Part shown: positions 10,609-24,401 of the stretch, piece by piece
Position numbering within the stretch: position 1 is the first letter of the stretch
Layout: each line of letters opens with the position of its first letter
Source: Cupriavidus basilensis
GTDB taxonomy: Bacteria; Pseudomonadota; Gammaproteobacteria; Burkholderiales; Burkholderiaceae
Length of the DNA stretch: 64,000 nucleotides
Assembly: GCF_008801925.2 (NCBI RefSeq)
Contig: NZ_CP062804.1
Coordinates: 1,240,001 to 1,304,000, forward strand
Reading direction: 5' to 3'
The notes under the pieces: generated by a model
What the model was told of the DNA's origin: nothing
The model's input: the letters and a program-made list of their open reading frames with translations, nothing else
Databases searched by the model: none
Translations under genes and position numbers: made by a program

Positions 10609-11913
10609 CTACGCCTTGCGCCGTGCCAGCGGCAATGTCGCCAGCCGTTCCAGCACCACGGCACGCATGCCCGCCGGCGCCGGCAGCTGCTCCAGCAATG
10701 CCGGCCAGCGCTCGTGCGCCATCGCCACCGCGTCCTTCACGGCGGCGGTGGCGATGCGCTCGGCGATCCGGGCCTTGCGCGCGAACTCGCGGTAGGTCTG
10801 CAGGGTTTGCTCGCGCTGCTGGCGGTCGATGGCCACATTCTGGCCGAAGCCGGCAAAGCCCGGCAGGGCGGCCACGCTGACGATGTCGTAAGCGGGCGAG
10901 AGCTCGGGGGCGACGCCGTTGCGGTACAGGAAGGAGAAGTTCTTAAGGTGAGCGTCACTGTTGCCCAGCAGGGTATTGACGGCCTGGCGGATAAAGAACT
11001 GCCGCACGTCTTCGATGCCACGCACGCTCAGGCGCTCCAGCAGTTGCACCAGGGCGGCGTAGGCGTCATGGCCGCCATACTTGCGGTTGGGCATGCGGGT
11101 CAGCAACTGGCAGCCGTCTTCGGCATGCACGCGCCCGCCGGGCTCGCGGTCGAAGCGGTCCACGGCGAGGAAGTGCAGGCCGGGGCCAAGGGCCTCGGCC
11201 AGCCCCTCGACCTCGATGGCGGCAAGCGGCGCGGGCCGGCACGGCGCCACCGCCACGCCAGCGGCCTGCGCCAGCTGCATCGACACGTATTCGTTGAAGA
11301 CCTGGCTGTCGTCATTGCGCGCGGGCAGCTTGGCGATCAGGTCGGAGAGGTGCCCGTGGGTGGGCATGGTGTAGCGCTTGCCGGCATGCGCGGTGGACAG
11401 CGCCAGCTTGTTCTGCACGCCCGAGACCGAGGCCGCGCCTTCGGTGGCGCCTTCGATCACGGCAATTTCGAGGTTGTCCGCGCCGCCCGTCACGCCGACG
11501 GTGCGCACGTGCTCGGGCAGGGCGTCGATGGGCGCGGGGCGCACCACCACCGCGCCCGGCAGGTCGTCGCCGGCGGCGGCCAGAATGCCGAAATCGTCGC
11601 GGTCTTCGGGATGGTGGCGCGTGGCCTCCAGGCGCTTGCGCAGCTCGCTCTCGGGCAACAGCCCGGCAAAGTAGGGCGGCAGCGCCGCGTTGGTGTTGTA
11701 CAGCGCGGGATGGAAAGGGTTGGACAGCACCGAGGCGGTCAGTGTGTCGTTGCCGGGGAAGGTCAGCGAAAGGCTGAGCGTGGGCCGCAGCGGGTCGCCG
11801 CGGAAGGCTTCCGCCGGCACGAAGCGGCAGGTGCGCCCCACCTCGCACAAATGGCCGCACAGCACGCCGTGCAGATGCACTTCCAGATAGCGGGGGCGTA
11901 GCCCGGTGCTCAT
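10609..11913 (-). CDS. hipA: HipA-type serine/threonine kinase toxin
   Basis: A 434-residue HipA kinase. The N-terminal couple_hipA domain (about 1-110) contains NPFHPALYNTNAALPPYFAG and LLPESELRKRLE; the kinase core has SGVQNKLALS (phosphate-binding loop), the lysine-bearing IAKLP, the catalytic LLGNSDAHLKNFSFLY and the metal-binding LSPAYDIVS. All key residues are present. In E. coli HipA phosphorylates glutamyl-tRNA synthetase and causes persistence; the target here is not known. Translation starts inside the last codons of hipB (four-base ATGA overlap), the usual order of the pair. Confidence 0.92.
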   Translation of the reverse strand: MSTGLRPRYLEVHLHGVLCGHLCEVGRTCRFVPAEAFRGDPLRPTLSLSLTFPGNDTLTASVLSNPFHPALYNTNAALPPYFAGLLPESELRKRLEATRHHPEDRDDFGILAAAGDDLPGAVVVRPAPIDALPEHVRTVGVTGGADNLEIAVIEGATEGAASVSGVQNKLALSTAHAGKRYTMPTHGHLSDLIAKLPARNDDSQVFNEYVSMQLAQAAGVAVAPCRPAPLAAIEVEGLAEALGPGLHFLAVDRFDREPGGRVHAEDGCQLLTRMPNRKYGGHDAYAALVQLLERLSVRGIEDVRQFFIRQAVNTLLGNSDAHLKNFSFLYRNGVAPELSPAYDIVSVAALPGFAGFGQNVAIDRQQREQTLQTYREFARKARIAERIATAAVKDAVAMAHERWPALLEQLPAPAGMRAVVLERLATLPLARRKA

Positions 11914-12203
11914 GATTCCTGCTCCAGGAACATTTCCACCGAGGTCTTGGCCTCGCGGTCCGGCCCGCTGTCCTTGCCCTCGACCAGGCGCTTCACGGCG
12001 AGCAGGTGCTCGCGTGGCACCAGGACCCATTCCGCATCGAGCGCGGCACCCACGGCTTCGAGTGTGGAGGCGCGCACATCGCTGCGGCCGCTCAGCGCTG
12101 TGGTCAGGTTGGACGGCGCCATGCCGATCAGCCGGGCCACTTCCCCCAGCGAGGATTTGCGTGTGGCTCGGCGTGCCTGGAGCTGATCAAAGAATGATGC
12201 CAT
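11910..12203 (-). CDS. hipB: HipB-type Xre antitoxin
   Basis: A 97-residue helix-turn-helix protein (RKSSLGEVARLIGMAPSNLT, TALSGRSDVRASTLEAVGAA) preceding and overlapping hipA. HipB proteins neutralise HipA and repress the operon through palindromes; four matching palindromes lie upstream, one of them over the start codon. The C-terminal tail (EAKTSVEMFLEQES) ends in an acidic stretch comparable to the unstructured tail used for proteolytic control in other HipB proteins. Confidence 0.9.
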   Translation of the reverse strand: MASFFDQLQARRATRKSSLGEVARLIGMAPSNLTTALSGRSDVRASTLEAVGAALDAEWVLVPREHLLAVKRLVEGKDSGPDREAKTSVEMFLEQES

Positions 12204-12314: not shown

Positions 12315-13940
12315 TCAGGCCGCCTTGCTCTGGTCTGCCGCTTGCCCTGCGGACGCCAGAACGCGGAAGTGGCCCAGCTCATCCGGCGCGCACTGCGCAA
12401 TCAACCCGGTTTCCCAGGCCAGGTAGGCGCGCGCGGCGTCCTTGTTGCCTTCGTGCCGGTCGTGCACGAAAAACAGGTAGTCGATACGCGCTTCCGGGGG
12501 CAGCCCCACCGGCTCGGCCGCCTCGGGCAGCCCCGCGGCCTGCCAGGTGCGGTAGCCCTCCGCCAGCCGGTACACGTGGCGGTAGCCGGCGGCCAGCAGA
12601 TCCTGCCCGGCCAGGTTGGCGATGTGCGGCTCGCTCGCGATCAGGATGACTGGCTGGTCGGGGGTGGCGCCAAGGCGGTCCAGCGTGGCGGGCAGGCGCG
12701 GGCGGATCGACCAGGCCGCGCCTTCGGCGTGGCCGCGGGCGTATTCGGCGCTTTCGCGCAGGTCGATGCGCAGCGCGTCGGGCGCCTGTGCGTACAGCGC
12801 GCGCAGCAGGTTGGCGTCGAGCACCGGCAGGGCGTGGGCGGGCAGGGTGCGCGGCGGCGCGCTCGCCTTGATGGCGGCATTGACGCCGTGCGCGAGCACG
12901 GCGCTCTCATAGCCCAGCTGGTAAAGCCAGCTGGCCACCACCGGTGCGCGCACGCCATCGTCGTCGAACACGATCACGCGGCTGCCGCGTACGCCGATGT
13001 ACTGGTCGGTGGCCTGCACCAGCTGGCCGCCGGGTGCGTGCCGCGCGCCGTCGATCGAGCCTTGCGCGAATTCCTCGGCAGTGCGGATATCCAGCAGGTA
13101 GGTGGTGCGGCTCTCATCGTCCAGCCACTGCTGCGCCTGCGTGGCCGACAGCGCGGGCAAGCCGGCGCGCTGCAGCAGCCGGGCCGAGCGAGCGCGCGCC
13201 TCGGCCAGCTCGCTGGCCGGCGGGGCCGCCGGGTAGCGGCGCTGGCTGCCATGCTCGAGCGCGTGGTCGGCCAGGTACCAGCCCTGCGTGCCATTCTCCA
13301 GCGCCAGCACCGGATTGGGCAGGCCAAGGTTGCGCAGCGTCTGCGCGCCGATGATGCTGCGCGTGCGCCCGGCGCAGTGCACCACCACGGTGGTCTGCGC
13401 ATCCGGCAGCAGCGCCGCCAGGCGCAGGGCCAGCTCGCCGTTGGGCAGGCTGTGCGCGCCGGGGATGGTCATCTTCTGGTGCTCGGCAAAGGTGCGGCCA
13501 TCCACCAGCACCAGCGGCTCGCCGCTGTCGCGGCGCGCCACCAGCTCAGCAGCGCTCAGGCGCGGCGTGTGCTGCTGGTGCTCGACCAGTTCGCCAAACG
13601 TCTTCGATGGTACGTTGACGCCCTTGAACAAGGTGTAGCCGGCCGCGGCCCACGCTGCGGCACCGCCCGCCAGCAGCGTGAGATTGCTGTAGCCCAGGCT
13701 AGCCAGCCGCTGTGCCGCCAGCTCGGCCACGCCGTCGCCGGCGTCGAGCAGCACGATGCGCTCGGCCAGGCGCGGCGCCAGCAGGGCAACATCCAGCTCC
13801 AGCCGGCTGTAGGGCAGGGGCACGGCGAAGAAGGGATGGCCCTCGCCATATTGGCCGTGCTCGCGCACGTCGAACAGCGCCAGGGGCTGGCCGTCGTTAA
13901 GCCAGCCGCGCAAGGTGACGGCGTCGATGGATTGGGTCAT
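12315..13940 (-). CDS. Four-domain rhodanese sulfurtransferase
   Basis: A 541-residue protein made of four rhodanese repeats. Only the second keeps the active cysteine (VVVHCAGRTRSIIGAQTLRN, Cys189); the first (IVLLDAGDG), third (VIVFDDDGVRA) and fourth (VILIASEPH) have lost it. A C-terminal segment (LFFVHDRHEGNKDAARAYLA, WETGL) follows. Active rhodaneses move sulfane sulfur through a cysteine persulfide. The gene lies 49 bases behind the thiol dioxygenase gene and both are clearly one operon; its whole length is repeated as the second half of the fusion protein at 14854. Confidence 0.9.
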   Translation of the reverse strand: MTQSIDAVTLRGWLNDGQPLALFDVREHGQYGEGHPFFAVPLPYSRLELDVALLAPRLAERIVLLDAGDGVAELAAQRLASLGYSNLTLLAGGAAAWAAAGYTLFKGVNVPSKTFGELVEHQQHTPRLSAAELVARRDSGEPLVLVDGRTFAEHQKMTIPGAHSLPNGELALRLAALLPDAQTTVVVHCAGRTRSIIGAQTLRNLGLPNPVLALENGTQGWYLADHALEHGSQRRYPAAPPASELAEARARSARLLQRAGLPALSATQAQQWLDDESRTTYLLDIRTAEEFAQGSIDGARHAPGGQLVQATDQYIGVRGSRVIVFDDDGVRAPVVASWLYQLGYESAVLAHGVNAAIKASAPPRTLPAHALPVLDANLLRALYAQAPDALRIDLRESAEYARGHAEGAAWSIRPRLPATLDRLGATPDQPVILIASEPHIANLAGQDLLAAGYRHVYRLAEGYRTWQAAGLPEAAEPVGLPPEARIDYLFFVHDRHEGNKDAARAYLAWETGLIAQCAPDELGHFRVLASAGQAADQSKAA

Positions 13941-13989
13941 GGCGTGCTCCGCGTGAACAAGGGATGGGGCTGTCGTCTTGGCCGCAATG

Positions 13990-14613
13990 TCAGGCCGCTG
14001 CTTTCTCGCTGCGGTTCATCTGCGTGGCGTTGTAGTTGACGATGCGCCCGGTCTCCAGCTCCACGCCGATGCGTCCCGTCAGCGTTTCGAGTGGACGGCC
14101 GTAGAGGTGGAAGTGCAGTGTGGGGGCGTCGCCCACCACGTGGATGCTGTGGATGTCCTGCGGCAGGAAGCTGATCGGCGTGCCCGGGCGCACCACCAGC
14201 TCGCGCTCCAGTTCGATGCTGGCGCGCTCGGGGTTGCTGCCGTCGTCGGTGCGGCGGTAGACGCGGTTGAGCTCATCGCCTTGCACGGCCACGATGACGG
14301 CCCACGTGTCATGGTTGTGCGGGATGGTCTTCTTGCCCGGCACGATCGAATTGAGGTAGAGCGCCGGCAACTGGCCTTCTCCGCTCAGGCGGTAGCGGGT
14401 AGAGGTGGTGGTGCCGTCGCTGGGCGGCGGGAAATCGGCAAAGCCGAACAGGTCCTTCTGGTCGGCCAGCTTCTGCAGGGCGGCGGTGATCTGACCGAGC
14501 GTGGCGCGATCCACCTCGCGCTGTGCCGTCAGTGCGCTGACCTCGGCGAGGGTGGCGGCAATGGCCGCATTGCGCTGGTTTTGCTGGTCGGTCTGGTTGG
14601 TCTGGGTCGTCAT
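13990..14613 (-). CDS. Cysteine/thiol dioxygenase-like cupin
   Basis: A 207-residue cupin of the cysteine dioxygenase family, which adds O2 to a thiol to give a sulfinate. The iron ligands are visible as TIPHNHDTW (His99, His101) and QDIHSIH (His155 by alignment to the paralogue). HFHLYG follows, as in bacterial CDO and 3-mercaptopropionate or mercaptosuccinate dioxygenases; the substrate is not decided. The start at 14613 begins a Gln/Thr-rich leader peptide (MTTQTNQTDQQNQ). It precedes the four-domain rhodanese gene and diverges from the fused version. Confidence 0.88.
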   Translation of the reverse strand: MTTQTNQTDQQNQRNAAIAATLAEVSALTAQREVDRATLGQITAALQKLADQKDLFGFADFPPPSDGTTTSTRYRLSGEGQLPALYLNSIVPGKKTIPHNHDTWAVIVAVQGDELNRVYRRTDDGSNPERASIELERELVVRPGTPISFLPQDIHSIHVVGDAPTLHFHLYGRPLETLTGRIGVELETGRIVNYNATQMNRSEKAAA

Positions 14614-14768
14614 GGGGGGAGATCCTGTTATGAATACGATGCCGTGGCAGGTGGCGGCCGTGCTCCACTCTACGGAGTGCGGGACCCGGGAAGAACGAAC
14701 AATATCGCCGATGCATATTCGGTTTTGATCTGGTGCAAGACGGCATGATGTCCGCGCCAGGCACGGCA

Positions 14769-14793
14769 TAACGATCTGCGATCTGATTCGTTA
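14769..14793. promoter_or_regulatory. Inverted repeat TAACGA-N13-TCGTTA, putative sulfur regulator site
   Basis: A perfect 6-bp inverted repeat with a 13-base spacer, 60 bases before the start of the fusion gene. The same motif with the same spacer (one mismatch) precedes the cystine-type ABC operon at 19825. The preceding bases (GCATAACGAT) are also shared. The architecture fits a LysR-type regulator such as CysB or Cbl; that assignment is inference. Confidence 0.5.
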
Positions 14794-14853
14794 GCGCCCG
14801 GTGCAACATCTTTTAGGCTTCAACCTGCCCAGCATTTTCAAGAGCTTCCCGCC

Positions 14854-17136
14854 ATGACCATTACCGACTTGTCCCAGACCTTGGCCGATACTGACGCAAG
14901 CGCCGAAGCCACGGCCGTTGCCGACCACGTGAGCGGCGCCCGCGCCGCGGCGGTCGCCGCCTTCATCGCCCGCGCCCGAGAGATCGCCGGCGGCCACGCC
15001 GCCGACAAGACGCCGCTGGCCGCGATCGCCGACGAACTGGTGGCGCTGGCTGGCCAGGCGCATCTGTTCCCGCCGGCGCATTTCCCCGTGGATGCGGCCA
15101 GGCCCGCCGCGATCTACCGGCTGGCGGAAGACCCGGACGGCCGCTTCGCCTTGTTCGCCTCGGCCGGCCTGCCGGGCAAGGCACAGCCGCCGCACGACCA
15201 CACCACCTGGGCGGTGATTGCCGGTGTGCGCGGCGTGGAGCGCAACGTGATCTTTCACCGCAGCCCGGGCAGCAAGCCCGGGCTCGACACGCTGGAGCCG
15301 CTGCGCCAGCTCGACGTGCAGGCAGGCAATGCCATCACGCTATCGCCAACCGATGTGCATACCATCGAACTGATCGGCGACACGCCCGGCCTGCACCTGC
15401 ATTTCTACGGCCTCACGCTGCCCCGCCTGAGCGAGCGCGTGAAGTTCGACCCCGCGCCCGAGGGCGGCACGCAATACAGCTACCGCACCTTTGCCGCGCC
15501 CGCGCTGATCCGCCATCCGCTGGTGAGCCCGGCCGCGCTCAAGCGCGCCATTGCGCAGGGGGAGGAGCTCGCTGTGCTGGATGCGCGGGAAGAGGGCGCT
15601 TTCTCACGCGAGCACCTGTTGTTCGCCGTGCCCGCCCCGCTGGGCCGGCTCGAAACCACGATCGACCGGCTGGTGCCGCGCCGCACCACGCGCATTGTGG
15701 TGACGGATCTGGCCGAGGATATCGCCCACGCGGCCGCGGCCAAGCTGTTGCGCTTTGGCTATACCAACGTATCCGTGCTGGAGGGCGGCACGCGTGCCTG
15801 GCAGGCCGCCGGCTATGAAATCTTCAGCGGCACCAACGTGCCCAGCAAAGCCTTCGGCGAAGTGATCGAGCACGAGCTGCACACGCCGTGGATCACCGCC
15901 GAGGCGCTCAAGCTGCACCAGACGCGTGGCGACAATGTGGTGGTGGTGGACAGCCGCCCCTTCACGGAATTCCAGAACATGAGCATTCCCGGCGCGGTGG
16001 ACTGCCCGGGCGCTGAGCTGGTCTACCGCATCGGTGAGATCGCGCCTGATCCCGAGACGCTGGTGGTGGTCAATTGCGCCGGCCGCACGCGCAGCATCGT
16101 GGGCGCGCAGACGTTGATCAACGCCGGCATTCCCAATCGCGTGGTGTCGCTCAAGGACGGCACCATGGCATGGCTGCTGGCCGGCTACCAGCTCGACCAC
16201 GGCCAGACCCGTTTCGCGCCACAGCCCGGCGAAGCCGCCCAGGCCGCGGCGCGTGAACGGGCCGCCCGCGTAGCGCAGCGCGCTGGCGTGCAACATATCG
16301 ATGCGGCGCAGCTAGCCGCCTTCGCGCAGCAGGCGGATGACCGCACGCTGTACCGCTTCGACGTCCGCTCGCCCGAGGAATACGCCGCAGGCCACCTGCC
16401 GGGCTGGCGCAGCGCCCCCGGCGGCCAGCTGGTGCAGGCCACCGACGCCTACGCCGGCACCCGCCGCGCCCGCATCGTGCTGGCCGACTGGGATGGCGTG
16501 CGCGCACAGATCACGGCAGCCTGGCTGGCCCAGTTCAGCGGGCATGAGGTCTACCTGTTCCGCCCGGCACCGCTGGCACCGCGCGAATCCGGCCCCGAGC
16601 CTGTGCGCGTGCTGCGGGCCTCCGAGGTCGAAGCGCCATGGATCGAAGCCGCATCGCTGTCCGCGCTGCAAGCGCAGGGCGGGGTCACGGTGGCGGACGT
16701 GGATAGCAGCCTGGCATTCCGACGCGGCCACCTGCCCGGCGCATGGTTCGCCACGCCGGAGAAGGTCGCGCTGGTGCTGGAGCAGGCCAGTGCCGACGAC
16801 ATCATCGTGGTGACGTCATCCGATGGCGTGCTGGCGCAAGCGGTAGCGGCCGAGTTGCGCCGCACCAGCCAGCGCGACGTACGCGCGCTGCTCGGCGGCA
16901 ACGCACGCTGGCAAGCGCTTGGCCTGCCAACGGAATCCGGCGAAGCCGGCACAGCCGCCGCAGCGCGCATCCTGACCGGCGACGAAGACGCGTGGTACAG
17001 CGCCTACGCCTACGAGGATGAAAGCCGCCGGAAGTCCGAGATGCACGCCTACCTGAACTGGGAAATCGGCCTGGTCGATCAACTAGAACGCGACGGTGAT
17101 CTGCCGGTACGGCTGGTGGATTACAGCCAGCCGTAG
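14854..17136 (+). CDS. Thiol dioxygenase-polyrhodanese fusion protein
   Basis: A 760-residue fusion. Residues 1-215 are a cysteine dioxygenase-type cupin with iron ligands in QPPHDHTTW (His114, His116) and TDVHTIELIGD (His169), then HLHFYG. Residues 220-760 are four rhodanese repeats matching the separate rhodanese at 12315 domain by domain; only the second has the active cysteine (VVVNCAGRTRSIVGAQTL, Cys408). The fusion suggests that the sulfinate or persulfide made at the iron site is passed to the rhodanese. It is divergent from the split version and has its own inverted repeat upstream. It is clearly a paralogue of the two-gene unit. Confidence 0.92.
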   Translation: MTITDLSQTLADTDASAEATAVADHVSGARAAAVAAFIARAREIAGGHAADKTPLAAIADELVALAGQAHLFPPAHFPVDAARPAAIYRLAEDPDGRFALFASAGLPGKAQPPHDHTTWAVIAGVRGVERNVIFHRSPGSKPGLDTLEPLRQLDVQAGNAITLSPTDVHTIELIGDTPGLHLHFYGLTLPRLSERVKFDPAPEGGTQYSYRTFAAPALIRHPLVSPAALKRAIAQGEELAVLDAREEGAFSREHLLFAVPAPLGRLETTIDRLVPRRTTRIVVTDLAEDIAHAAAAKLLRFGYTNVSVLEGGTRAWQAAGYEIFSGTNVPSKAFGEVIEHELHTPWITAEALKLHQTRGDNVVVVDSRPFTEFQNMSIPGAVDCPGAELVYRIGEIAPDPETLVVVNCAGRTRSIVGAQTLINAGIPNRVVSLKDGTMAWLLAGYQLDHGQTRFAPQPGEAAQAAARERAARVAQRAGVQHIDAAQLAAFAQQADDRTLYRFDVRSPEEYAAGHLPGWRSAPGGQLVQATDAYAGTRRARIVLADWDGVRAQITAAWLAQFSGHEVYLFRPAPLAPRESGPEPVRVLRASEVEAPWIEAASLSALQAQGGVTVADVDSSLAFRRGHLPGAWFATPEKVALVLEQASADDIIVVTSSDGVLAQAVAAELRRTSQRDVRALLGGNARWQALGLPTESGEAGTAAAARILTGDEDAWYSAYAYEDESRRKSEMHAYLNWEIGLVDQLERDGDLPVRLVDYSQP

Positions 17137-17205
17137 GCGCAAAGGCATCGCTTCGGCCAGCACCCGCCCTCTCCCCCGGCCCCTTGTATGTCGGAAAATA
17201 TGTCC

Positions 17206-17281
17206 TGGAAGCCTCAGATCGATGGCCCCATGCCCTGGGCGAAAGCCCAAGTTCGAGGGAGAGCGAGGATCGAGGCTTCCA
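17206..17281 (+). ncRNA. Structured leader of the IS110 element, bridge RNA candidate
   Basis: A 10-bp stem TGGAAGCCTC (17206-17215) / GAGGCTTCCA (17272-17281) is extended, after one bulged A, by GATC/GATC (17217-17220/17268-17271). The enclosed loop carries a second hairpin, TGGGC-GAAA-GCCCA (17236-17249), capped by a GNRA tetraloop. It lies 78 bases before the transposase start. IS110-group elements encode a bridge RNA in this 5' non-coding end, so an RNA gene is plausible. The complete RNA may extend on both sides. Confidence 0.45.
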
Positions 17282-17298
17282 TTTTTGATAGCGTTTAG

Positions 17299-18309
<1,011 letters not shown>

Positions 18310-18317
18310 CACGGTTG

Positions 18318-18408
18318 CTCTCCCACAAGTGGGAGAGGGGAGCCAACCAGCGGACAATGTGAAGGATTCGGTGTAGCCGGGATTCCCGCCCGAAGGGGCG
18401 GGAATCCC
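18318..18408. repeat. Two intergenic palindromes downstream of the IS element
   Basis: CTCTCCCAC-AA-GTGGGAGAG (18318-18337, perfect 9-bp arms) is followed by GGGATTCCCGCCC-GAAG-GGGCGGGAATCCC (18379-18408, perfect 13-bp arms). Neither is followed by a T tract, so they look more like REP-type repeats than plain terminators. Confidence 0.6.
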
Positions 18409-18465
18409 CCACGGCGATGCGAAGCGAGCCGTGTAGGTGTGCCAAGGCCGTATGGGGCGCCTCGG

Positions 18466-18626
18466 GATCCGGCGAAAAGAGCGGAAAAGAGGGACCCATG
18501 TCTGAGTATCGCCTTAAGGCGATGCGAGTTTGGGTCCCGGCCGCTCTTTTCGCCGGATCACGAGGGGAAGTCGCCCCATCCGGCGCGCCTTCTTTGCCTA
18601 CTTTCTTGGCAAGACAAGAAAGTAGG
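18466..18626. repeat. Nested long palindrome plus hairpin, REP-like mosaic
   Basis: Perfect 19-bp arms GATCCGGCGAAAAGAGCGG (18466-18484) and its complement (18541-18559) enclose GGGACCCA/TGGGTCCC (18491-18498/18531-18538) and ATCGCC-TTAA-GGCGAT (18508-18523): three nested stems in 94 bases. Shortly after comes CCTACTTTCTTG-gcaaga-CAAGAAAGTAGG (18597-18626). Similar TACTTTCTTG/CAAGAAAGTA hairpins are a familiar intergenic repeat in Burkholderiales. Together with the preceding palindromes this fills the whole gap between the transposase and the Bug gene. Confidence 0.65.
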
Positions 18627-18674
18627 TCGCCGCCCCGCAGGGGTGGTGAAACTGCAGTTGCCTTTGACTCACCT

Positions 18675-18712
18675 CAACGACACTCACCGCAACGACACTC
18701 ACCGCAACGACA
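18675..18712. repeat. 15-bp tandem repeat across the Bug stop codon
   Basis: CAACGACACTCACCG occurs twice in tandem (18675-18689, 18690-18704) with a partial third copy (18705-18712). On the minus strand the stop codon of the Bug gene (18699-18701) lies inside the second copy, so the repeat forms the extreme C-terminus and the 3' flank. Confidence 0.6.
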
Positions 18713-19703
18713 TCCCCGCCCCCAAAATCACCAAAGCATACCTAGGCAAATCCCGAGCCAAAGTCGCATCCAGCTCCTGCGCCGAAGACCCCACCACAAC
18801 ATACCCCGCATCCTCCAGCTGCCCCCGCGTAGCCGGCACATCAAGCACAGCCGCAACATCGCGGCTGATGCGATCCACCACATCAGCAGGCGTAGCCGCA
18901 GGCGCAAGCAGCCCCTGCCAGCTTTCCACCGCGAAACCCGCGGCACCTGCTTCCGCCATGGTCGGCACCTGTGGCAGCGCCTTCGAGCGATAGGGCGTGG
19001 TCACCGCCAGCGCAGTCAGCCGGCCGGAGCGCACGTAATCGGTCACCGCCGCGAGCGTGATCAGCGTTGCGTCGATGTGCCCGCCAAGCAGGTCGACCGT
19101 GGCGGGCGCGCCCCCGGCATAGGGAATGTAGTTGACCTTGATGCCGGTCTGGCGCGATAGCATTTCATGGGCCACGTGGGCAATGCCGCCATTGCCGGGC
19201 AGGCCAAGCGTGACCTCGCCGGGCTTCTTGCGTGCCAGCGCGATGTAGTCCTGCAGGTTGCGCACGCCAAGATCCGGCCTGACGACCAGGATCTGCGGAT
19301 TCACCACCGCCTTGCTGACACCGCGAAACGCGCGGCTCGCATCGTACGGCAGTGTCTTGAACAGCGACGCGTTCAGCGTCACGCCTTCGCCACCCAGCAG
19401 CAAGGTGTAGCCGTCCGGCTTGGCTCGCGCCACCTGCGCGGCACCCAGGGTGCCGCTGGCGCCCACCACGTTTTCCACCACCACGGGCTGGCCCCATTTC
19501 TCGCTGAGCTTGAGCGCCAGCGTTCGTGCGAGCTTGTCGGCACTGCCGCCGGGCGCCACCGGCACCACGATGCGCACGGGACGCGCAGGGAAAGCCTGCG
19601 GGGCCTGCGTGGCATAACTGTGAAAAGGTACGCCAGCGATGGCGGCCGCGGCGGCGGCGACGGGCAGGCAAAGAAGGGTGCGGAACAGGGTGCGACGTTG
19701 CAT
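18699..19703 (-). CDS. Bug/TctC family tripartite tricarboxylate-type binding protein
   Basis: A 334-residue periplasmic binding protein with a signal peptide (MQRRTLFRTLLCLPVAAAAA, cleaved near ATQA). Family motifs are FPARPVRIVVPVAPGGSADK, VVVENVVGASGTLGAAQVAR, KPDGYTLLLGGEG and VNYIPYAGGAPATVDLLGGH. Bug proteins bind carboxylates or amino acid-like ligands, usually without a linked TctAB membrane pair, as here. It diverges from the ABC importer operon. Codon use is normal for the window. The start at 19703 excludes an upstream in-frame extension that lacks homology and precedes the signal peptide. Confidence 0.9.
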   Translation of the reverse strand: MQRRTLFRTLLCLPVAAAAAAIAGVPFHSYATQAPQAFPARPVRIVVPVAPGGSADKLARTLALKLSEKWGQPVVVENVVGASGTLGAAQVARAKPDGYTLLLGGEGVTLNASLFKTLPYDASRAFRGVSKAVVNPQILVVRPDLGVRNLQDYIALARKKPGEVTLGLPGNGGIAHVAHEMLSRQTGIKVNYIPYAGGAPATVDLLGGHIDATLITLAAVTDYVRSGRLTALAVTTPYRSKALPQVPTMAEAGAAGFAVESWQGLLAPAATPADVVDRISRDVAAVLDVPATRGQLEDAGYVVVGSSAQELDATLARDLPRYALVILGAGMSLR

Positions 19704-19929: not shown

Positions 19930-20778
19930 ATGACCCGCACTCTTTCGCTGCGCTCCCCACGTCTTCTCGCCTTCGCTGCCGCCTTGCTGGCCGGCACCTT
20001 CTTTGCCGGCGCCGCGCAGGCCGACGCCACGCTCGACAAGATCCGCCAGCGCGGCAAGATCGCGGTCGGCATCATGCTGTCTGGCAGCGCTTTCGGCTCG
20101 ATCGATCCCGCCACGCAAAAGCCCGTCGGCTTCAATGCGGACCTCGCGCAGGACCTGGCCAGGCAGCTCAATGTGGAGCTGGAAACGGTGCAGGTGCAGC
20201 CGTCCAATCGCGTGCAGTTCCTGCAGCAGGGCAAAGTCGACGTGCTGATCGCGGCGATGGAATACAACGCCGAGCGCGGTGAGCAGCTGGGCCACGTGCC
20301 TACGCCTTACTATCGCGTGGGCGGCGCCGTGATCGTGCCCAAGCAAAGCGATATCCGCCGCTGGGAAGACTTGAAGGGCAAGACGGTGTGCATCTCGCAG
20401 GGCAGCAGCTATACGCGTCCCGTGCAGGTGGAATACGGCGCCATCCCGAAGGGCTTCAAGGGCTCGGCGGAATCGCTGCTGGCGCTGCGCGGTGACAACT
20501 GCGCCGGCGCCGTGCACGACAACACGCTGCTGCAGCCGCTGGTGCGGGGCAACCCGGAATGGCAGAACTACCGCATCGTGCTGCCTGAGCTCAATCCCGC
20601 GCCGACTGTGATCTGGACTCGCAAGGGCGAGCAGGACACCATTTCCGCGGTGGACCGCATCGTGCAGAACTGGCATCGCAGCGGCTGGCTGGTTGCCACC
20701 GAGAAGAAGGCCGGCATCCTGCCGCCGTCGCCTGCGCTGATCGAGCTGCATGACAAGTTCAAGGGCGGCCGTTCCTGA
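19930..20778 (+). CDS. Polar amino acid ABC transporter, substrate-binding protein (probably cystine)
   Basis: A 282-residue family 3 solute-binding protein. The signal peptide is MTRTLSLRSPRLLAFAAALL with cleavage after AQA; the mature protein starts DATLDKIRQRGKIAVGIMLS and contains FGSIDPATQKPVGFNADLAQ, the typical amino-acid-binding lobe 1. First gene of a five-gene operon (binding protein, two permeases, ATPase, cystathionine beta-lyase) with overlapping ends. The lyase argues for cystine or another sulfur amino acid as ligand. The start is set at the ATG before the signal peptide. Confidence 0.87.
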   Translation: MTRTLSLRSPRLLAFAAALLAGTFFAGAAQADATLDKIRQRGKIAVGIMLSGSAFGSIDPATQKPVGFNADLAQDLARQLNVELETVQVQPSNRVQFLQQGKVDVLIAAMEYNAERGEQLGHVPTPYYRVGGAVIVPKQSDIRRWEDLKGKTVCISQGSSYTRPVQVEYGAIPKGFKGSAESLLALRGDNCAGAVHDNTLLQPLVRGNPEWQNYRIVLPELNPAPTVIWTRKGEQDTISAVDRIVQNWHRSGWLVATEKKAGILPPSPALIELHDKFKGGRS

Positions 20779-21524
20779 TGGAAGCAGCGATTGCCTGGTG
20801 GATCGATGCGGCGCACCGCATCGGCCTGAACTACGCGTTCCTCGCCGATGCCTATGACCGCGCCTCATTCGTGCATGGCGCCTGGGTAACCATCGAGCTG
20901 GTGCTTTGCACCCTTGCCGGCAGCCTGGTCGCCGGCGTGGGAATGGCGGCGGCGCTGACCTCGCGCAACGCGTTGCTGGCCGGTGCCACGCGCGCGTTTG
21001 TGGAAGTCACCCGCAATACGCCGACCCTGGTACAGCTCTACTGCGCCTTCCTGGTTCTCAACATGCTGATCACCCATGCCTTGCAGGACGCGCAGCGGAC
21101 CAATCCGCTTACGCCGTTCCTGTGGGTGGTGGTAGTGCTGTCGCTGCACAAGGGCGTGTTTCATGCCGAAGCCTTGCGCGCTGGCATCGAGGCGGTGCCC
21201 AAGGTCACGCTCGAGGCGGCGGCGTCGCTCGGCTTTGATCGCCGTACTTTGCTCTGGCGTGTGCAGTTGCCGCTGGCGGTGCGCTTTGCCCTGCCTGCCC
21301 TGGTCAACAATTCCGTGGAGCTGGTCAAGGCCACGGCGGTGGCGTCCGCGATTGCGGTGGGCGATATCACCTACGCCTCCATCATGATCTGGACCCAGCG
21401 CGACAACGTGCTGGAACTGATGGTGCTGCTGCTGTTGTTCTTCGGCCTGCTGACCTGGGTGGTCAGCCACGCGGGCAACTGGCTGGAACTTCGACTAAGG
21501 ATGCCCGGCTATGGCGAGCGCTGA
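20778..21524 (+). CDS. Polar amino acid ABC permease 1
   Basis: A 248-residue inner-membrane permease of the HisM/GltJ type with about five helices. It has VEVTRNTPTLVQLYCAFLVL and the EAA loop EALRAGIEAVPKVTLEAAAS, LGFDRRTLLWRVQLPLAVR that docks on the ATPase. Its ATG overlaps the stop of the binding-protein gene by one base and its end overlaps the next permease by 14 bases, so translation is coupled. Confidence 0.9.
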   Translation: MEAAIAWWIDAAHRIGLNYAFLADAYDRASFVHGAWVTIELVLCTLAGSLVAGVGMAAALTSRNALLAGATRAFVEVTRNTPTLVQLYCAFLVLNMLITHALQDAQRTNPLTPFLWVVVVLSLHKGVFHAEALRAGIEAVPKVTLEAAASLGFDRRTLLWRVQLPLAVRFALPALVNNSVELVKATAVASAIAVGDITYASIMIWTQRDNVLELMVLLLLFFGLLTWVVSHAGNWLELRLRMPGYGER

Positions 21525-22314
21525 TTCCACTTTCCTCGCCGCGCCCGCGACGTCGCGCGCCGGCCGTTATGCTGGGCTGCTGTGGCTCCTGCCGCTGGTG
21601 GCGGTGGCGCTCGCGGCGACCCGCCACCCGGACCTGGCCCGCGCGCTGGCCAGCGCTTGGCAATGGTCGCCGGCGCTGGCGCGCGGCTTCCTGGTCAATA
21701 TCGGCGTGAGCCTGCTGGCGATCTTGCTGGGCACGGCCGGCGGGCTGCTGGTCGGCGCGTTGCGCCTGTCGCCGGTGGCGCTGCTGTCGCGCCCGGCGCA
21801 TTTGTACGTGCAGGTGTTCCGCAATGCTCCCTGGCTGGTGCTGATCTACTTCTCCACCTACGTCTTCCCGTTCGAGGTGAATATCGGCAGCCATATCGTG
21901 CCGTTTCCCGACTGGTTCAAGGTGGTGGTGGGGCTGGCGCTGCCGGCCAGCGCCAACGTGGCCGAGGTGCTGCGCGGCGCGGTGCAGTCGATCCCGCTCA
22001 CGCAGTGGGAGGCGGCCAGCTCGATGGCGTTCTCGCGCTGGCAGATCCTGCGGCTGATCATCGTTGCGCAATGCGTGCGCCGCATGCTGCCGCCGTGGAT
22101 GAACCTGTACGCCACGCTCACCATGGGCACCGCGCTGGCCTCGCTGGTGGGCGTGCACGATCTGCTCGATACCGCGCAGATCGCCAGCAATACCGTCAAC
22201 CAGACCGCCTTCACCGTGCTGATCTATTTCACCGTGCTGGCGATGTTCTTTGCCTGGTGCTACCCGATTTCGCGCTTCACCCGTTTCCTGGAACAAAAAT
22301 ATGCTGTTGCCTGA
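21511..22314 (+). CDS. Polar amino acid ABC permease 2
   Basis: A 267-residue second permease, forming a heterodimer with the first. It has VQVFRNAPWLVLIYFSTYVF and the EAA loop LRGAVQSIPLTQWEAASSMA, FSRWQILRLIIVAQCVRRM. The N-terminus carries an extra helix before the conserved core. It overlaps the previous gene by 14 bases and the ATPase gene by 14 bases. Confidence 0.9.
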   Translation: MASADSTFLAAPATSRAGRYAGLLWLLPLVAVALAATRHPDLARALASAWQWSPALARGFLVNIGVSLLAILLGTAGGLLVGALRLSPVALLSRPAHLYVQVFRNAPWLVLIYFSTYVFPFEVNIGSHIVPFPDWFKVVVGLALPASANVAEVLRGAVQSIPLTQWEAASSMAFSRWQILRLIIVAQCVRRMLPPWMNLYATLTMGTALASLVGVHDLLDTAQIASNTVNQTAFTVLIYFTVLAMFFAWCYPISRFTRFLEQKYAVA

Positions 22315-23158
22315 ACACAATGGCGGACCCGTGTTGTCCGTGGTCCCCGAGCCTGCCGCGCCGCTGGTTGCGCTCAAGGACGTGCACCTTGCCTTTGGCG
22401 GCAACCCGGTGCTCAAGGGCATCGACCTGGAAGTGCGGCGCGGGCAGGCGGTGTCCATCATCGGGCCGTCCGGCTCGGGCAAGTCCACCATCCTGCGTTG
22501 CCTTACCGGCCTGCTGGAGCCGCAGCAGGGCACGGTGACGGTCGGCGGTGTTTCGGTGCGCGAGCTGCGCAGCGAGGCCGAGCGCATTGCGCTGCGCAAG
22601 CGTGTGGGCTTTGTCTTCCAGCAGTACAACCTGTTTCCGCACCTGACCGTGCTGCAGAACCTCACCATCGCGCCGTTGCGCGTGCTGGGGCGCGGCCGCG
22701 CCCAGGCGGAGGCCACGGCCATCGCGTTGCTGCGCAAGGTGCGCCTGGCCGACAAGGCCGGCGCATATCCGGGCGAGCTGTCCGGCGGCCAGCAGCAGCG
22801 CGTGGCGATTGCCCGCGCGCTGGCGATGGAGCCCGAGCTGATCCTGTTCGACGAGGTGACCTCGGCGCTGGACCCGGAGACGGTGGGCGAGGTGCTGACC
22901 GTGATCGGCGACCTGGTCGAGGAGGGGCTGACCTGCCTGCTGGTGACGCATGAGATGCGCTTTGCCGAAGAAATCAGCGACGAGGTTTACTTCACCGAAG
23001 GCGGGCGCATTGTCGAGCATGGCCCGGCCAGCCGCATCTTCAGCGCGCCGCGCAGCGAGCGCACGCGCGCCTTTCTCAACCGCTCGCTCGGCGCAGCCCC
23101 GCGCGCACAGGCCGATCCCTTCGTTTTCTCGTTCGACAAGCTGCGCTTTGCCGTCTGA
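22301..23158 (+). CDS. Polar amino acid ABC transporter ATPase
   Basis: A 285-residue GlnQ/HisP-type ATPase. Walker A is IGPSGSGKSTILR, the Q-loop FVFQQYNLFPHLTVLQNL, the signature LSGGQQQRVAIARAL, Walker B LILFDEVTSALDPE and the H-loop LLVTHEMRFA, all intact. A leader of about 25 residues precedes the domain and a 30-residue tail follows it. It energises the two upstream permeases; the lyase gene begins 34 bases later. Confidence 0.93.
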   Translation: MLLPEHNGGPVLSVVPEPAAPLVALKDVHLAFGGNPVLKGIDLEVRRGQAVSIIGPSGSGKSTILRCLTGLLEPQQGTVTVGGVSVRELRSEAERIALRKRVGFVFQQYNLFPHLTVLQNLTIAPLRVLGRGRAQAEATAIALLRKVRLADKAGAYPGELSGGQQQRVAIARALAMEPELILFDEVTSALDPETVGEVLTVIGDLVEEGLTCLLVTHEMRFAEEISDEVYFTEGGRIVEHGPASRIFSAPRSERTRAFLNRSLGAAPRAQADPFVFSFDKLRFAV

Positions 23159-23192: not shown

Positions 23193-24401
23193 ATGAGCCA
23201 TCATCGCGATACCCAACTGATCCATGCCGGCACGCCGCCCTTTGTCCAGGGCCACGGCCCGGTCAATGTGCCGGTGGTGCGCACCAGCACCGTGCGCTTC
23301 GAGAACTCGGACGCCTATGACGATATCCGGGCGCGCCATGCGCGCGGCGAGCGTGTCAGCTCCTATGGCCGGCAGGGCATGGATACGCACCGGGCGCTGG
23401 AAGACGCGATTGCCGGACTCGAAGGCGGCAACCGCACCTTCCTGGCGCCCTCGGGGCTGGCGGCGATCTCGCTGACCTTCCTGGCGCTGCTGTCGCCAGG
23501 TGACCATGCGCTGGTGGTGGACAGCGTCTATGCGCCGGTACGCAGGCTGGAGCAAACGCTGCTACGCCGCCTGGGCATCGAGGTCAGCTACTTCTCGCCC
23601 AGCCAGGACGATCTGGACGCGCTGATCCGCCCCAACACGCGGCTGCTCTACCTGGAGTCGCCCAGTTCTCTGTTGTACGAGGTGCTGGACCTGCCGCGCC
23701 TTGCGCAGATCGCGCACCGCCATGGCGTGGTGGTGGCCACCGACAATACGTGGGCTTCCGGCCATGTGCTGCAGCCGCTGGCGCTCGGCGTGGATGTATC
23801 GATCCTGGCATCGACCAAGTACATCAGCGGCCATTCCGACCTGATGCAGGGCGCGGTGGTGGTCAAGGACGAGGGGCTGGCGCGCCGCATTGCCGATGCC
23901 TACGATGGCTTCGGCCTGGCCATCAGCGCGGACGATGCCTACCTGGCGCTGCGCGGCATCCGCACGCTGGCGGTGCGGCTGGCGCAGCACCAGCGCAATG
24001 CCTTGGCGGTGGCACAGTTCCTGGAACCGCATGAGGCGGTAGGGCGCGTGTTCTATCCGGCCTTGCCCTCGGACCCCGGCCACGCGCTGTGGCTGCGGGA
24101 TTTCTCCGGCGCCAACGGGCTGGTCTCGTTCTCGCTGCCCGGCGCCGATGTGGCGGCGGCGCGCAAGCTGGTGGATTCGCTGAGCTTGTTCGGGCTGGGG
24201 GCTTCGTGGGGCGGCTATGAAAGCCTGGTGCAGGTGGCAGCGCCGGAGCGCCTGGCGGAACACTCATACTGGCGTGGCGCCGAGCCGGTGATCCGCCTGC
24301 ATATCGGCCTGGAAGCAGCGGAGGATCTGATCGCCGACCTGGCGCAGGGGCTGGCGGCGACGGTGCAGGCATCCGTGCCGCAACGGCGCGCGGCGGCCTG
24401 A
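23193..24401 (+). CDS. metC: Cystathionine beta-lyase / cystine lyase, PLP-dependent
   Basis: A 402-residue member of the Cys/Met metabolism PLP family. It starts MSHHRDTQLIHAG and contains VNVPVVRTSTVRFEN, YGRQGMDTHRALEDAIAGLE, the PLP-stacking region DNTWASG, the Schiff-base lysine in ILASTKYISGHSDLMQGAVV, and SLFGLGASWGGYESLV near the C-terminus; this last variant with WGGYES is typical of beta-lyases (MetC) rather than gamma-synthases. Cleavage of cystathionine or cystine to a thiol, pyruvate and ammonia fits the linked importer. ATG has AGGAACC upstream. Confidence 0.9.
   Translation: MSHHRDTQLIHAGTPPFVQGHGPVNVPVVRTSTVRFENSDAYDDIRARHARGERVSSYGRQGMDTHRALEDAIAGLEGGNRTFLAPSGLAAISLTFLALLSPGDHALVVDSVYAPVRRLEQTLLRRLGIEVSYFSPSQDDLDALIRPNTRLLYLESPSSLLYEVLDLPRLAQIAHRHGVVVATDNTWASGHVLQPLALGVDVSILASTKYISGHSDLMQGAVVVKDEGLARRIADAYDGFGLAISADDAYLALRGIRTLAVRLAQHQRNALAVAQFLEPHEAVGRVFYPALPSDPGHALWLRDFSGANGLVSFSLPGADVAAARKLVDSLSLFGLGASWGGYESLVQVAAPERLAEHSYWRGAEPVIRLHIGLEAAEDLIADLAQGLAATVQASVPQRRAAA

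What the first reader, a model, noticed from the sequence alone, without database searches (positions are those of the whole stretch)
12315..17136. Thiol dioxygenase plus polyrhodanese present both split and fused, back to back
A two-gene operon (cysteine dioxygenase-type cupin and a four-domain rhodanese with one active cysteine) stands divergent to a single gene encoding the same five domains in one chain. The same active-cysteine domain is kept and the same three are inactive in both. A rhodanese of four repeats coupled to a thiol dioxygenase is unusual and suggests direct transfer of an oxidised or persulfidic sulfur, perhaps for a thiol such as mercaptosuccinate, 3-mercaptopropionate or glutathione persulfide. 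This is my best candidate for an undescribed system in the window.
Basis: partly seen in the sequence, partly recalled or inferred. Interest (0 to 1): 0.7.

Follow-up and report, generated by a model that had tools for sequence, protein, structure and literature searches.

The report
Thiol dioxygenase fused to four rhodaneses
A bacterium carries, back to back, a split and a fused version of a sulfur-oxidising enzyme tied to a four-part sulfur-transfer protein; the partnership is known in print from related bacteria, but we found no study of the fused version or of the likely pathway around it (uptake and cleavage of sulfur-containing amino acids).

Summary
Observation confirmed: a cupin and a four-domain rhodanese lie divergent to one gene encoding all five domains. 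Iron ligands H114, H116, H169 and the single active cysteine C408 are conserved in every aligned relative that covers them. The cupins are of mercaptosuccinate dioxygenase (MsdO) type, the rhodaneses of PA2603 type. Split and fused copies are old paralogues, not a recent fusion or fission; the genome also holds a canonical msdO cluster.

The pairing is not undescribed: msdO with a rhodanese gene (PMC5373536) and a 3mdo-tst unit (PMC12947264) are in print. The fused gene occurs in 15 of 40 genomes sampled from this genus but 4 of 150 from the order.

New here: among 56 long fused loci, 46 have a cystathionine-beta-lyase-type enzyme and 43 a polar amino acid ABC transporter; 13 rhodanese-only loci have neither above threshold. 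In three alphaproteobacterial loci the lyase follows the fused gene.

Best reading: imported S-substituted cysteines are cleaved to a mercapto-acid or persulfide; the cupin oxidises the thiol to a sulfinate that yields sulfite; the rhodanese moves sulfane sulfur between sulfite, thiosulfate and persulfides. Substrates and the rhodanese step are inferred.

The parts
12315..13940 (-). stand-alone four-domain rhodanese, 541 aa; active Cys189 in domain 2
13990..14613 (-). stand-alone MsdO-type thiol dioxygenase (cupin), 207 aa, RYR at the place of fused residues 87-89; its stop lies 49 bp before the rhodanese start; an ATG-started frame extends to 14769
14614..14853 (.). divergent intergenic region between the split pair and the fused gene (240 bp)
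14854..17136 (+). fused thiol dioxygenase plus four rhodanese domains, 760 aa; cupin about residues 1-220 (Fe ligands H114, H116, H169), rhodanese domains about 221-756
15193..15201 (+). codons of iron ligands H114-D115-H116 of the fused protein
15358..15360 (+). codon of iron ligand H169
16075..16077 (+). codon of active Cys408 in rhodanese domain 2 (loop CAGRTR)
18699..19703 (-). TctC/Bug-type solute-binding protein (PF03401), part of the conserved neighbourhood (39 of 56 long fused loci)
19930..20778 (+). periplasmic binding protein of a polar amino acid type ABC transporter (PF00497)
20778..21524 (+). ABC permease 1 (PF00528)
21511..22314 (+). ABC permease 2 (PF00528)
22301..23158 (+). ABC ATPase; best NCBIfam model L-cystine TcyN (287 bits, below its cut-off 406)
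23193..24401 (+). cystathionine beta-lyase-type PLP C-S lyase (TIGR01324, 400.6 bits, cut-off 365.9)

Best explanation
The fused protein and the split pair are two paralogous modules that each join an MsdO-type, iron-dependent thiol dioxygenase to a PA2603-type tetra-rhodanese. They serve one catabolic cluster for S-substituted cysteines or cystine-like disulfides. Proposed route: (1) the ABC transporter, perhaps helped by the TctC binding protein, imports the compound; (2) the cystathionine-beta-lyase-type enzyme cleaves the C-S bond to pyruvate, ammonia and a mercapto-carboxylic acid, or its persulfide if the substrate was a disulfide; (3) the cupin oxidises the thiol with O2 to a sulfinate, which loses sulfite as sulfinosuccinate does in the MsdO pathway; (4) Cys408 of the rhodanese carries sulfane sulfur, most likely joining it to the sulfite to give thiosulfate (or running the reverse). 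Domains 1, 3 and 4 are probably structural. Fusion would keep sulfite next to its sulfur donor. The fused and split cupins probably prefer different mercapto-acids, because the pattern at residues 87-89 is clade-specific ([IV]YR fused, RYR split, RYL in MsdO). Shown by sequence: domain composition, residue conservation, phylogeny, cluster conservation. Inferred: every substrate, the order of steps, and the rhodanese reaction.
Against: No activity is known for any of these three proteins. In Advenella, deletion of the four transporter genes of the msdO cluster is listed as wild-type phenotype (strain table of PMC5373536), so the transporter is not needed there for whatever growth was tested; this fits import of something other than mercaptosuccinate, or no role. 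Deleting tst in P. protegens did not significantly change 3-mercaptopropionate (means somewhat higher at 4 and 8 h), so the rhodanese may do something unrelated to thiol turnover. Ten of 56 long fused loci have no lyase above the threshold (L047's lies just under it at 47.97%), and the early-branching betaproteobacterial loci L050 and L110 show none beside the fused gene. One rhodanese-only locus (L112) has a lyase match of 44%, under the threshold. The third cupin clade (L097-L103) has a rhodanese neighbour but no lyase or transporter match. The binding protein reaches no NCBIfam cut-off. A further lyase homologue (44%) elsewhere in the genome shows that the family has other roles. Loci are not independent samples: many are Achromobacter, Variovorax or Cupriavidus.
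Confidence: 0.42

Rival explanations
1. Direct relay, the first reader's idea: the cupin acts on a persulfide, or hands an oxidised sulfur to Cys408 through a channel in the chain.
For: One chain, with a confident overall model (pTM 0.88); precedent of ETHE1-type persulfide dioxygenase-rhodanese fusions (PMC6060420, passages read).
Against: The cupin is of the thiol, not the persulfide, dioxygenase fold; in many relatives the partner is a separate protein; tst deletion in P. protegens did not significantly change thiol levels. No coordinates were available here to measure a channel.
Confidence: 0.12
2. Sulfur assimilation: the cupin makes sulfite from an organic thiol, and the rhodanese independently releases sulfite or sulfide from thiosulfate for biosynthesis, under CysB-type control. 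The two functions are co-regulated, not coupled.
For: Among 56 long fused loci a CysB-family regulator matches in 20, a sulfur transporter (PF04143) in 10 and an SseA-like rhodanese in 10. The title of Motl et al. 2017, seen in the reference list of PMC6060420, assigns a persulfide dioxygenase-rhodanese fusion to sulfur assimilation; the paper itself is not held.
Against: None of those three genes matches in the window cluster; fusion and correlated distances suggest more than co-regulation.
Confidence: 0.26
3. Sulfite detoxification during mercaptosuccinate-like growth, as suggested for strain B4: the rhodanese removes sulfite with sulfane sulfur from general cell pools.
For: [quoted passage not shown]
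Against: That is a proposal in the source, and it does not by itself explain fusion or the lyase.
Confidence: 0.2

Closest known systems
Mercaptosuccinate dioxygenase (MsdO) of Variovorax paradoxus B4 and Advenella mimigardefordensis, with its cluster
   Same: Cupin fold, three histidines, His-His-Tyr at the triad place. The published genes lie near a rhodanese gene and a cystathionine beta-lyase, in Advenella also an amino acid ABC transporter (passages; the number of rhodanese domains is not given there). The canonical copy in this genome (L096, 62% to 8vni) has a full-length relative of the window's four-domain rhodanese.
   Different: Window cupins are 45% (split) and 40% (fused) identical to 8vni and lie outside its clade; the 87-89 pattern differs (RYR, [IV]YR against RYL); the fused one is part of the rhodanese chain.
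PA2603-type thiosulfate sulfurtransferase (1yt8)
   Different: PA2603 and two relatives (L113, L115) also have a Cys in the domain 4 loop, where the window proteins have S or A; the partner there is a 3MDO, not an MsdO-type cupin.
3mdo-tst unit of Pseudomonas protegens, homologous to PA2602-PA2603
   Same: Thiol dioxygenase gene followed by the PA2603 homologue, apparently one transcription unit (PMC12947264, passages).
   Different: Two genes; other dioxygenase subfamily (Ser-His-Tyr triad).
ETHE1-type persulfide dioxygenase-rhodanese fusions (PpPDO; the S. aureus type III enzyme, CstB, a name I recall)
   Same: An iron dioxygenase fused to rhodanese in one chain.
   Different: Metallo-beta-lactamase superfamily, iron held by two His and one Asp, substrate persulfide (PMC6060420, passages); no such domain match in the window protein.

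Membership tests
Mercaptosuccinate dioxygenase (MsdO) | cupin fold with three iron-ligand histidines | tested here: met
Mercaptosuccinate dioxygenase (MsdO) | member of the clade that holds 8vni | tested here: not met
   Cupin tree (quick search): MsdO clade is 4 rows, support 100; both window cupins lie in other starred clades. The tool warned that long branches meet at the split-cupin/MsdO join. The own-genome L096 copy is in the MsdO clade.
Mercaptosuccinate dioxygenase (MsdO) | oxidises mercaptosuccinate | not testable with these tools
   needs enzyme assay
PA2603-type tetra-rhodanese | four rhodanese domains with active Cys in the second (CAGRTR loop) | tested here: met
PA2603-type tetra-rhodanese | thiosulfate sulfurtransferase activity | not testable with these tools
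   needs assay; the name of 1yt8 in the PDB is the depositors' label
3-mercaptopropionate dioxygenase / CDO_I (PF05995) | match to the PF05995 profile | tested here: not met
3-mercaptopropionate dioxygenase / CDO_I (PF05995) | Ser-His-Tyr triad | tested here: not met
   His-His-Tyr at 181, 183, 185 (H181 in 64 of 65 fused, 41 of 49 split), as in 8vni; the own 3MDO-like protein has S-H-Y
ETHE1-type persulfide dioxygenase-rhodanese fusion | metallo-beta-lactamase-fold dioxygenase domain | tested here: not met
   Pfam shows rhodanese only; the N-terminal domain matches cupin thiol dioxygenases

The most novel reading that the evidence does not exclude
The fused protein is a one-chain thiosulfate synthase. 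A disulfide or S-conjugate of cysteine is cleaved by the cluster's C-S lyase to a persulfide R-SSH; Cys408 takes the outer sulfur; the cupin oxidises the remaining R-SH to a sulfinate that sheds sulfite; the same Cys408 persulfide joins the sulfite to give thiosulfate. Both sulfur atoms leave as one less toxic molecule. A linked idea: the msdO-lyase clusters are an undescribed route for S-(2-succino)cysteine, with mercaptosuccinate as the lyase product.
Probability: 0.2. Interest if true: 0.75.

Novelty: new variant of a known kind. Interest (0 to 1): 0.47.

Why it matters
Thiol dioxygenases of at least two subfamilies keep the same four-domain rhodanese as neighbour, and in one lineage the two became one protein, found in several genera of Burkholderiales and in a few Alphaproteobacteria. 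That makes an open question testable: what the rhodanese does in aerobic breakdown of organic thiols. The recurring C-S lyase and amino acid transporter also suggest where mercaptosuccinate-like thiols could come from in nature.

Tried and rejected
Recent fission or fusion in this genome: rejected. In the cupin tree fused and split rows are the two sides of one branch (SH-aLRT 91, 47 against 36 rows), and in the rhodanese tree the two window copies lie in different starred clades. Both trees are quick searches without bootstrap. In one search the outgroup branch is very long (7.49), so the root, and hence which state came first, is unsure; the tool also warned of long branches meeting.

Persulfide dioxygenase of the ETHE1 type: rejected on fold.

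Loss of the iron ligands or Cys408 in relatives: looked for, not found. Another loss does occur: six rhodanese rows without a cupin lie inside the main fused clade of 27 (L004, L056, L057, L061, L065, L066). In Cupriavidus proteins P0003-P0006 (560-566 aa) the fused N-terminal peptide is kept and the cupin is missing.

A single fused clade in the rhodanese tree: not obtained. Four fused rows (L046, L052, L050, L110) lie elsewhere under weak branches.

A first count of neighbours by clustering predicted genes (lyase in 40 of 56 loci, binding protein 38, ATPase family 38, TctC 33) was replaced by the tblastn count, which does not depend on my gene calling. In one search two queries were in a wrong frame; one search uses the corrected ones.

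Literature: the ten searches listed no paper whose title or abstract start names a cupin-tetrarhodanese fusion; for only the top of a longer list was shown, and I opened passages of six papers only. Subscription papers, including the original MsdO papers, are not held, so absence in print is not shown. PMC9706529 on S-(2-succino)cysteine has no occurrence of mercaptosuccin-, dioxygenase, cystathionine, rhodanese or ABC transporter in the main text; PMC8050391 has none of rhodanese or PA2603; PMC6370202 none of rhodanese.

A Cys408-to-iron distance was not measured: no model coordinates are in the Python box. The second structure job and the third protein search were not used.

Full report

CATALYTIC RESIDUES. 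In 65 fused and 49 split cupins H114 and H116 are H in 65 of 65 and 48 of 49 (one gap), and H169 in 65 of 65 and 49 of 49. C408 is kept in 63 of 63 fused and 44 of 44 split rhodaneses and in PA2603; 7 truncated rhodaneses were dropped first. The loops of domains 1, 3 and 4 begin mostly with D; D; and S or A; only PA2603 and two relatives (L113, L115) have a Cys in domain 4. The triad is His-His-Tyr, as in 8vni, not the Ser-His-Tyr of 3MDO. At fused positions 87-89 the pattern is clade-specific: [IV]YR in 59 of 65 fused (the rest VWR, VFR, IYH, LYH), RYR in 37 of 49 split, RYL in the three MsdO-clade rows and 8vni, LYR in 6 of 7 rows of a third clade. Position 89 is 25 residues before the first iron ligand; in rat CDO, from memory, Arg60 is 26 before. 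That likeness, and the idea that it sets substrate choice, are mine.

HOW OLD AND HOW COMMON. A protein search scored 7997 candidates and kept 7937; of the 120 listed, 115 are of fused length. Of 87 encoding places in named genome contigs the best 80 were kept. Together with the window, 27 of these 81 have the fused gene alone, 26 fused plus a split cupin, 14 a rhodanese alone, and 14 other mixes. Full-length fused genes occur in 15 of 40 genomes sampled from the window's genus, 4 of 150 of the order and 3 of 299 of the phylum, own genome included each time; these are my counts from the rows, and only part of the first-look candidates is scored, so they are lower bounds. The cupin tree (85 of 116 rows after thinning at 90%) separates fused from split by one branch, support 91, with 8vni on the split side; it is a quick tree with a very long outgroup and a long-branch warning. 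The rhodanese tree (66 of 108 rows) puts the window copies in different starred clades and shows six cupin-less members inside the main fused clade; four other fused rows are placed elsewhere with weak support. Distances of linked cupin and rhodanese modules correlate (r 0.84, n=39 of 79 pairs after thinning; split pairs only 0.81, n=15 of 16; 0 of 2000 permutations as high). Shared species history is not removed by that test. One of the split pairs, L056, joins a split cupin to a rhodanese of the fused clade and was left in.

THREE SETS IN ONE GENOME. The genome (8.94 Mb) has a third set at C2:1506037-1508373: a LysR gene divergent from a cupin 62% identical to 8vni, then a 546-residue rhodanese (55% to the window's split one over 534 columns), a TctC protein, a cystathionine beta-lyase and a nitroreductase. 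This is the canonical msdO cluster. It also has two CDO_I-family proteins; one looks like 3MDO beside genes that look like a CoA-transferase and an enoyl-CoA hydratase (reading; no family scan was run on those two).

THE NEIGHBOURHOOD. Beyond the stated interval the window holds TctC (18699-19703), an ABC transporter of polar amino acid type (19930-23158) and a cystathionine-beta-lyase-type enzyme (23193-24401; TIGR01324 400.6 bits, cut-off 365.9). Among 56 fused loci of 17 kb or more (of 65), the lyase is in 46, at least two transporter parts in 43 (both together in 43), TctC in 39, a split cupin in 32, an aminotransferase in 28, a CysB-family regulator in 20, a split rhodanese in 8. Among 13 rhodanese-only loci lyase and transporter are in none and TctC in one; one of them, L112, has a 44% lyase match under the threshold. 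Identity thresholds were set by me, and loci within a genus are not independent. In the alphaproteobacterial loci L046 and L052 52 bp separate the fused gene from the lyase, and L047 has the lyase match at the same place. The lyases follow the cupin type: Burkholderiales clusters of the window's kind carry lyases 60-95% like the window's, the alphaproteobacterial ones 47-48%; the two other msdO loci carry lyases closer to L096's (67 and 56%) than to the window's (52%). Not all fused genes have this setting: ten of 56 lack a lyase above threshold, and L050 and L110 show other neighbours.

A WIDER RULE. Among the rhodaneses of the PA2603 clade, L113 and L115 lie directly beside a 3MDO-type dioxygenase and L116 3.6 kb from one. 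In the order census 12 of 15 cupin-only hits, and in the genus census 22 of 28, lie within 1.4 kb and 1 kb of a stand-alone rhodanese (my counts). So this rhodanese type is a recurring neighbour of at least two dioxygenase subfamilies.

WHAT IS IN PRINT. PMC5373536 (passages): msdO of Advenella, like that of V. paradoxus B4, lies with a rhodanese gene and a cystathionine beta-lyase; a figure legend adds an amino acid ABC transporter; MsdO yields sulfinosuccinate, which falls apart to succinate and sulfite; the strain table lists the transporter deletion as wild type. PMC12947264 (passages): in P. protegens 3mdo and tst appear to form one transcription unit; the tst deletion had no significant effect on 3-mercaptopropionate. 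PMC6060420 (passages): ETHE1-type persulfide dioxygenases fused to rhodanese. No paper on the cupin fusion turned up in the searches listed under Tried and rejected, within the limits stated there.

MECHANISM. Shown by sequence: the domains, their conserved sites, the parallel history of the two halves, the cluster. Inferred: import of an S-substituted cysteine or disulfide, C-S cleavage to a mercapto-acid or persulfide, oxidation to a sulfinate, release of sulfite, and rhodanese chemistry joining sulfite and sulfane sulfur. The tst result fits a rhodanese that acts after the thiol step, but fits no role in it equally well. The wild-type phenotype of the Advenella transporter deletion fits a transporter for something other than mercaptosuccinate, or none. 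S-(2-succino)cysteine is an attractive source of mercaptosuccinate, because beta-cleavage would give exactly that; it is a proposal only.

VERDICT. A real, conserved and, as far as I could see, uncharacterised protein architecture in a known kind of system; a new variant, not a new category.

Noticed in passing
17128-18697 (transposase ORF 17314-18309, +): An IS110-family element (NF033542) lies in a 1570-bp stretch between matched flanks of the fused gene and TctC, where relative L003 has 74 bp.
   Followed up: partly
10609-12030 (-) and 11910-12203 (-): A HipA-type gene with a small upstream ORF that looks like its HTH partner, next to the split rhodanese; the HipA gene is also in L003, L004, L059 and L063.
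   Followed up: no
L059:10001-11896: In C. basilensis OR16 the fused protein (P0002, 633 aa) lacks a stretch at the junction of the cupin and rhodanese domain 1, and its split rhodanese reads in two open frames.
   Followed up: partly
P0003-P0006; L004:10001-11617: Cupriavidus rhodaneses that keep the fused N-terminal peptide but lack the cupin (P0003-P0006); L004 has the same kind of rhodanese, no fused cupin match, and an intact split pair.
   Followed up: partly
L097-L103: A third cupin clade (LYR in 6 of 7) paired with tetra-rhodaneses in genomes of the order, with no lyase or transporter match nearby; substrate unknown.
   Followed up: partly
L083 (G000:C1:601000-618000): A CDO_I-family protein beside a LysR gene, with genes that look like a polar amino acid ABC transporter 3-6 kb away.
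   Followed up: no
L110:11283-13163: In an early-branching fused locus the next gene looks like an ABC-F type ATPase rather than a lyase (by sequence only).
   Followed up: no
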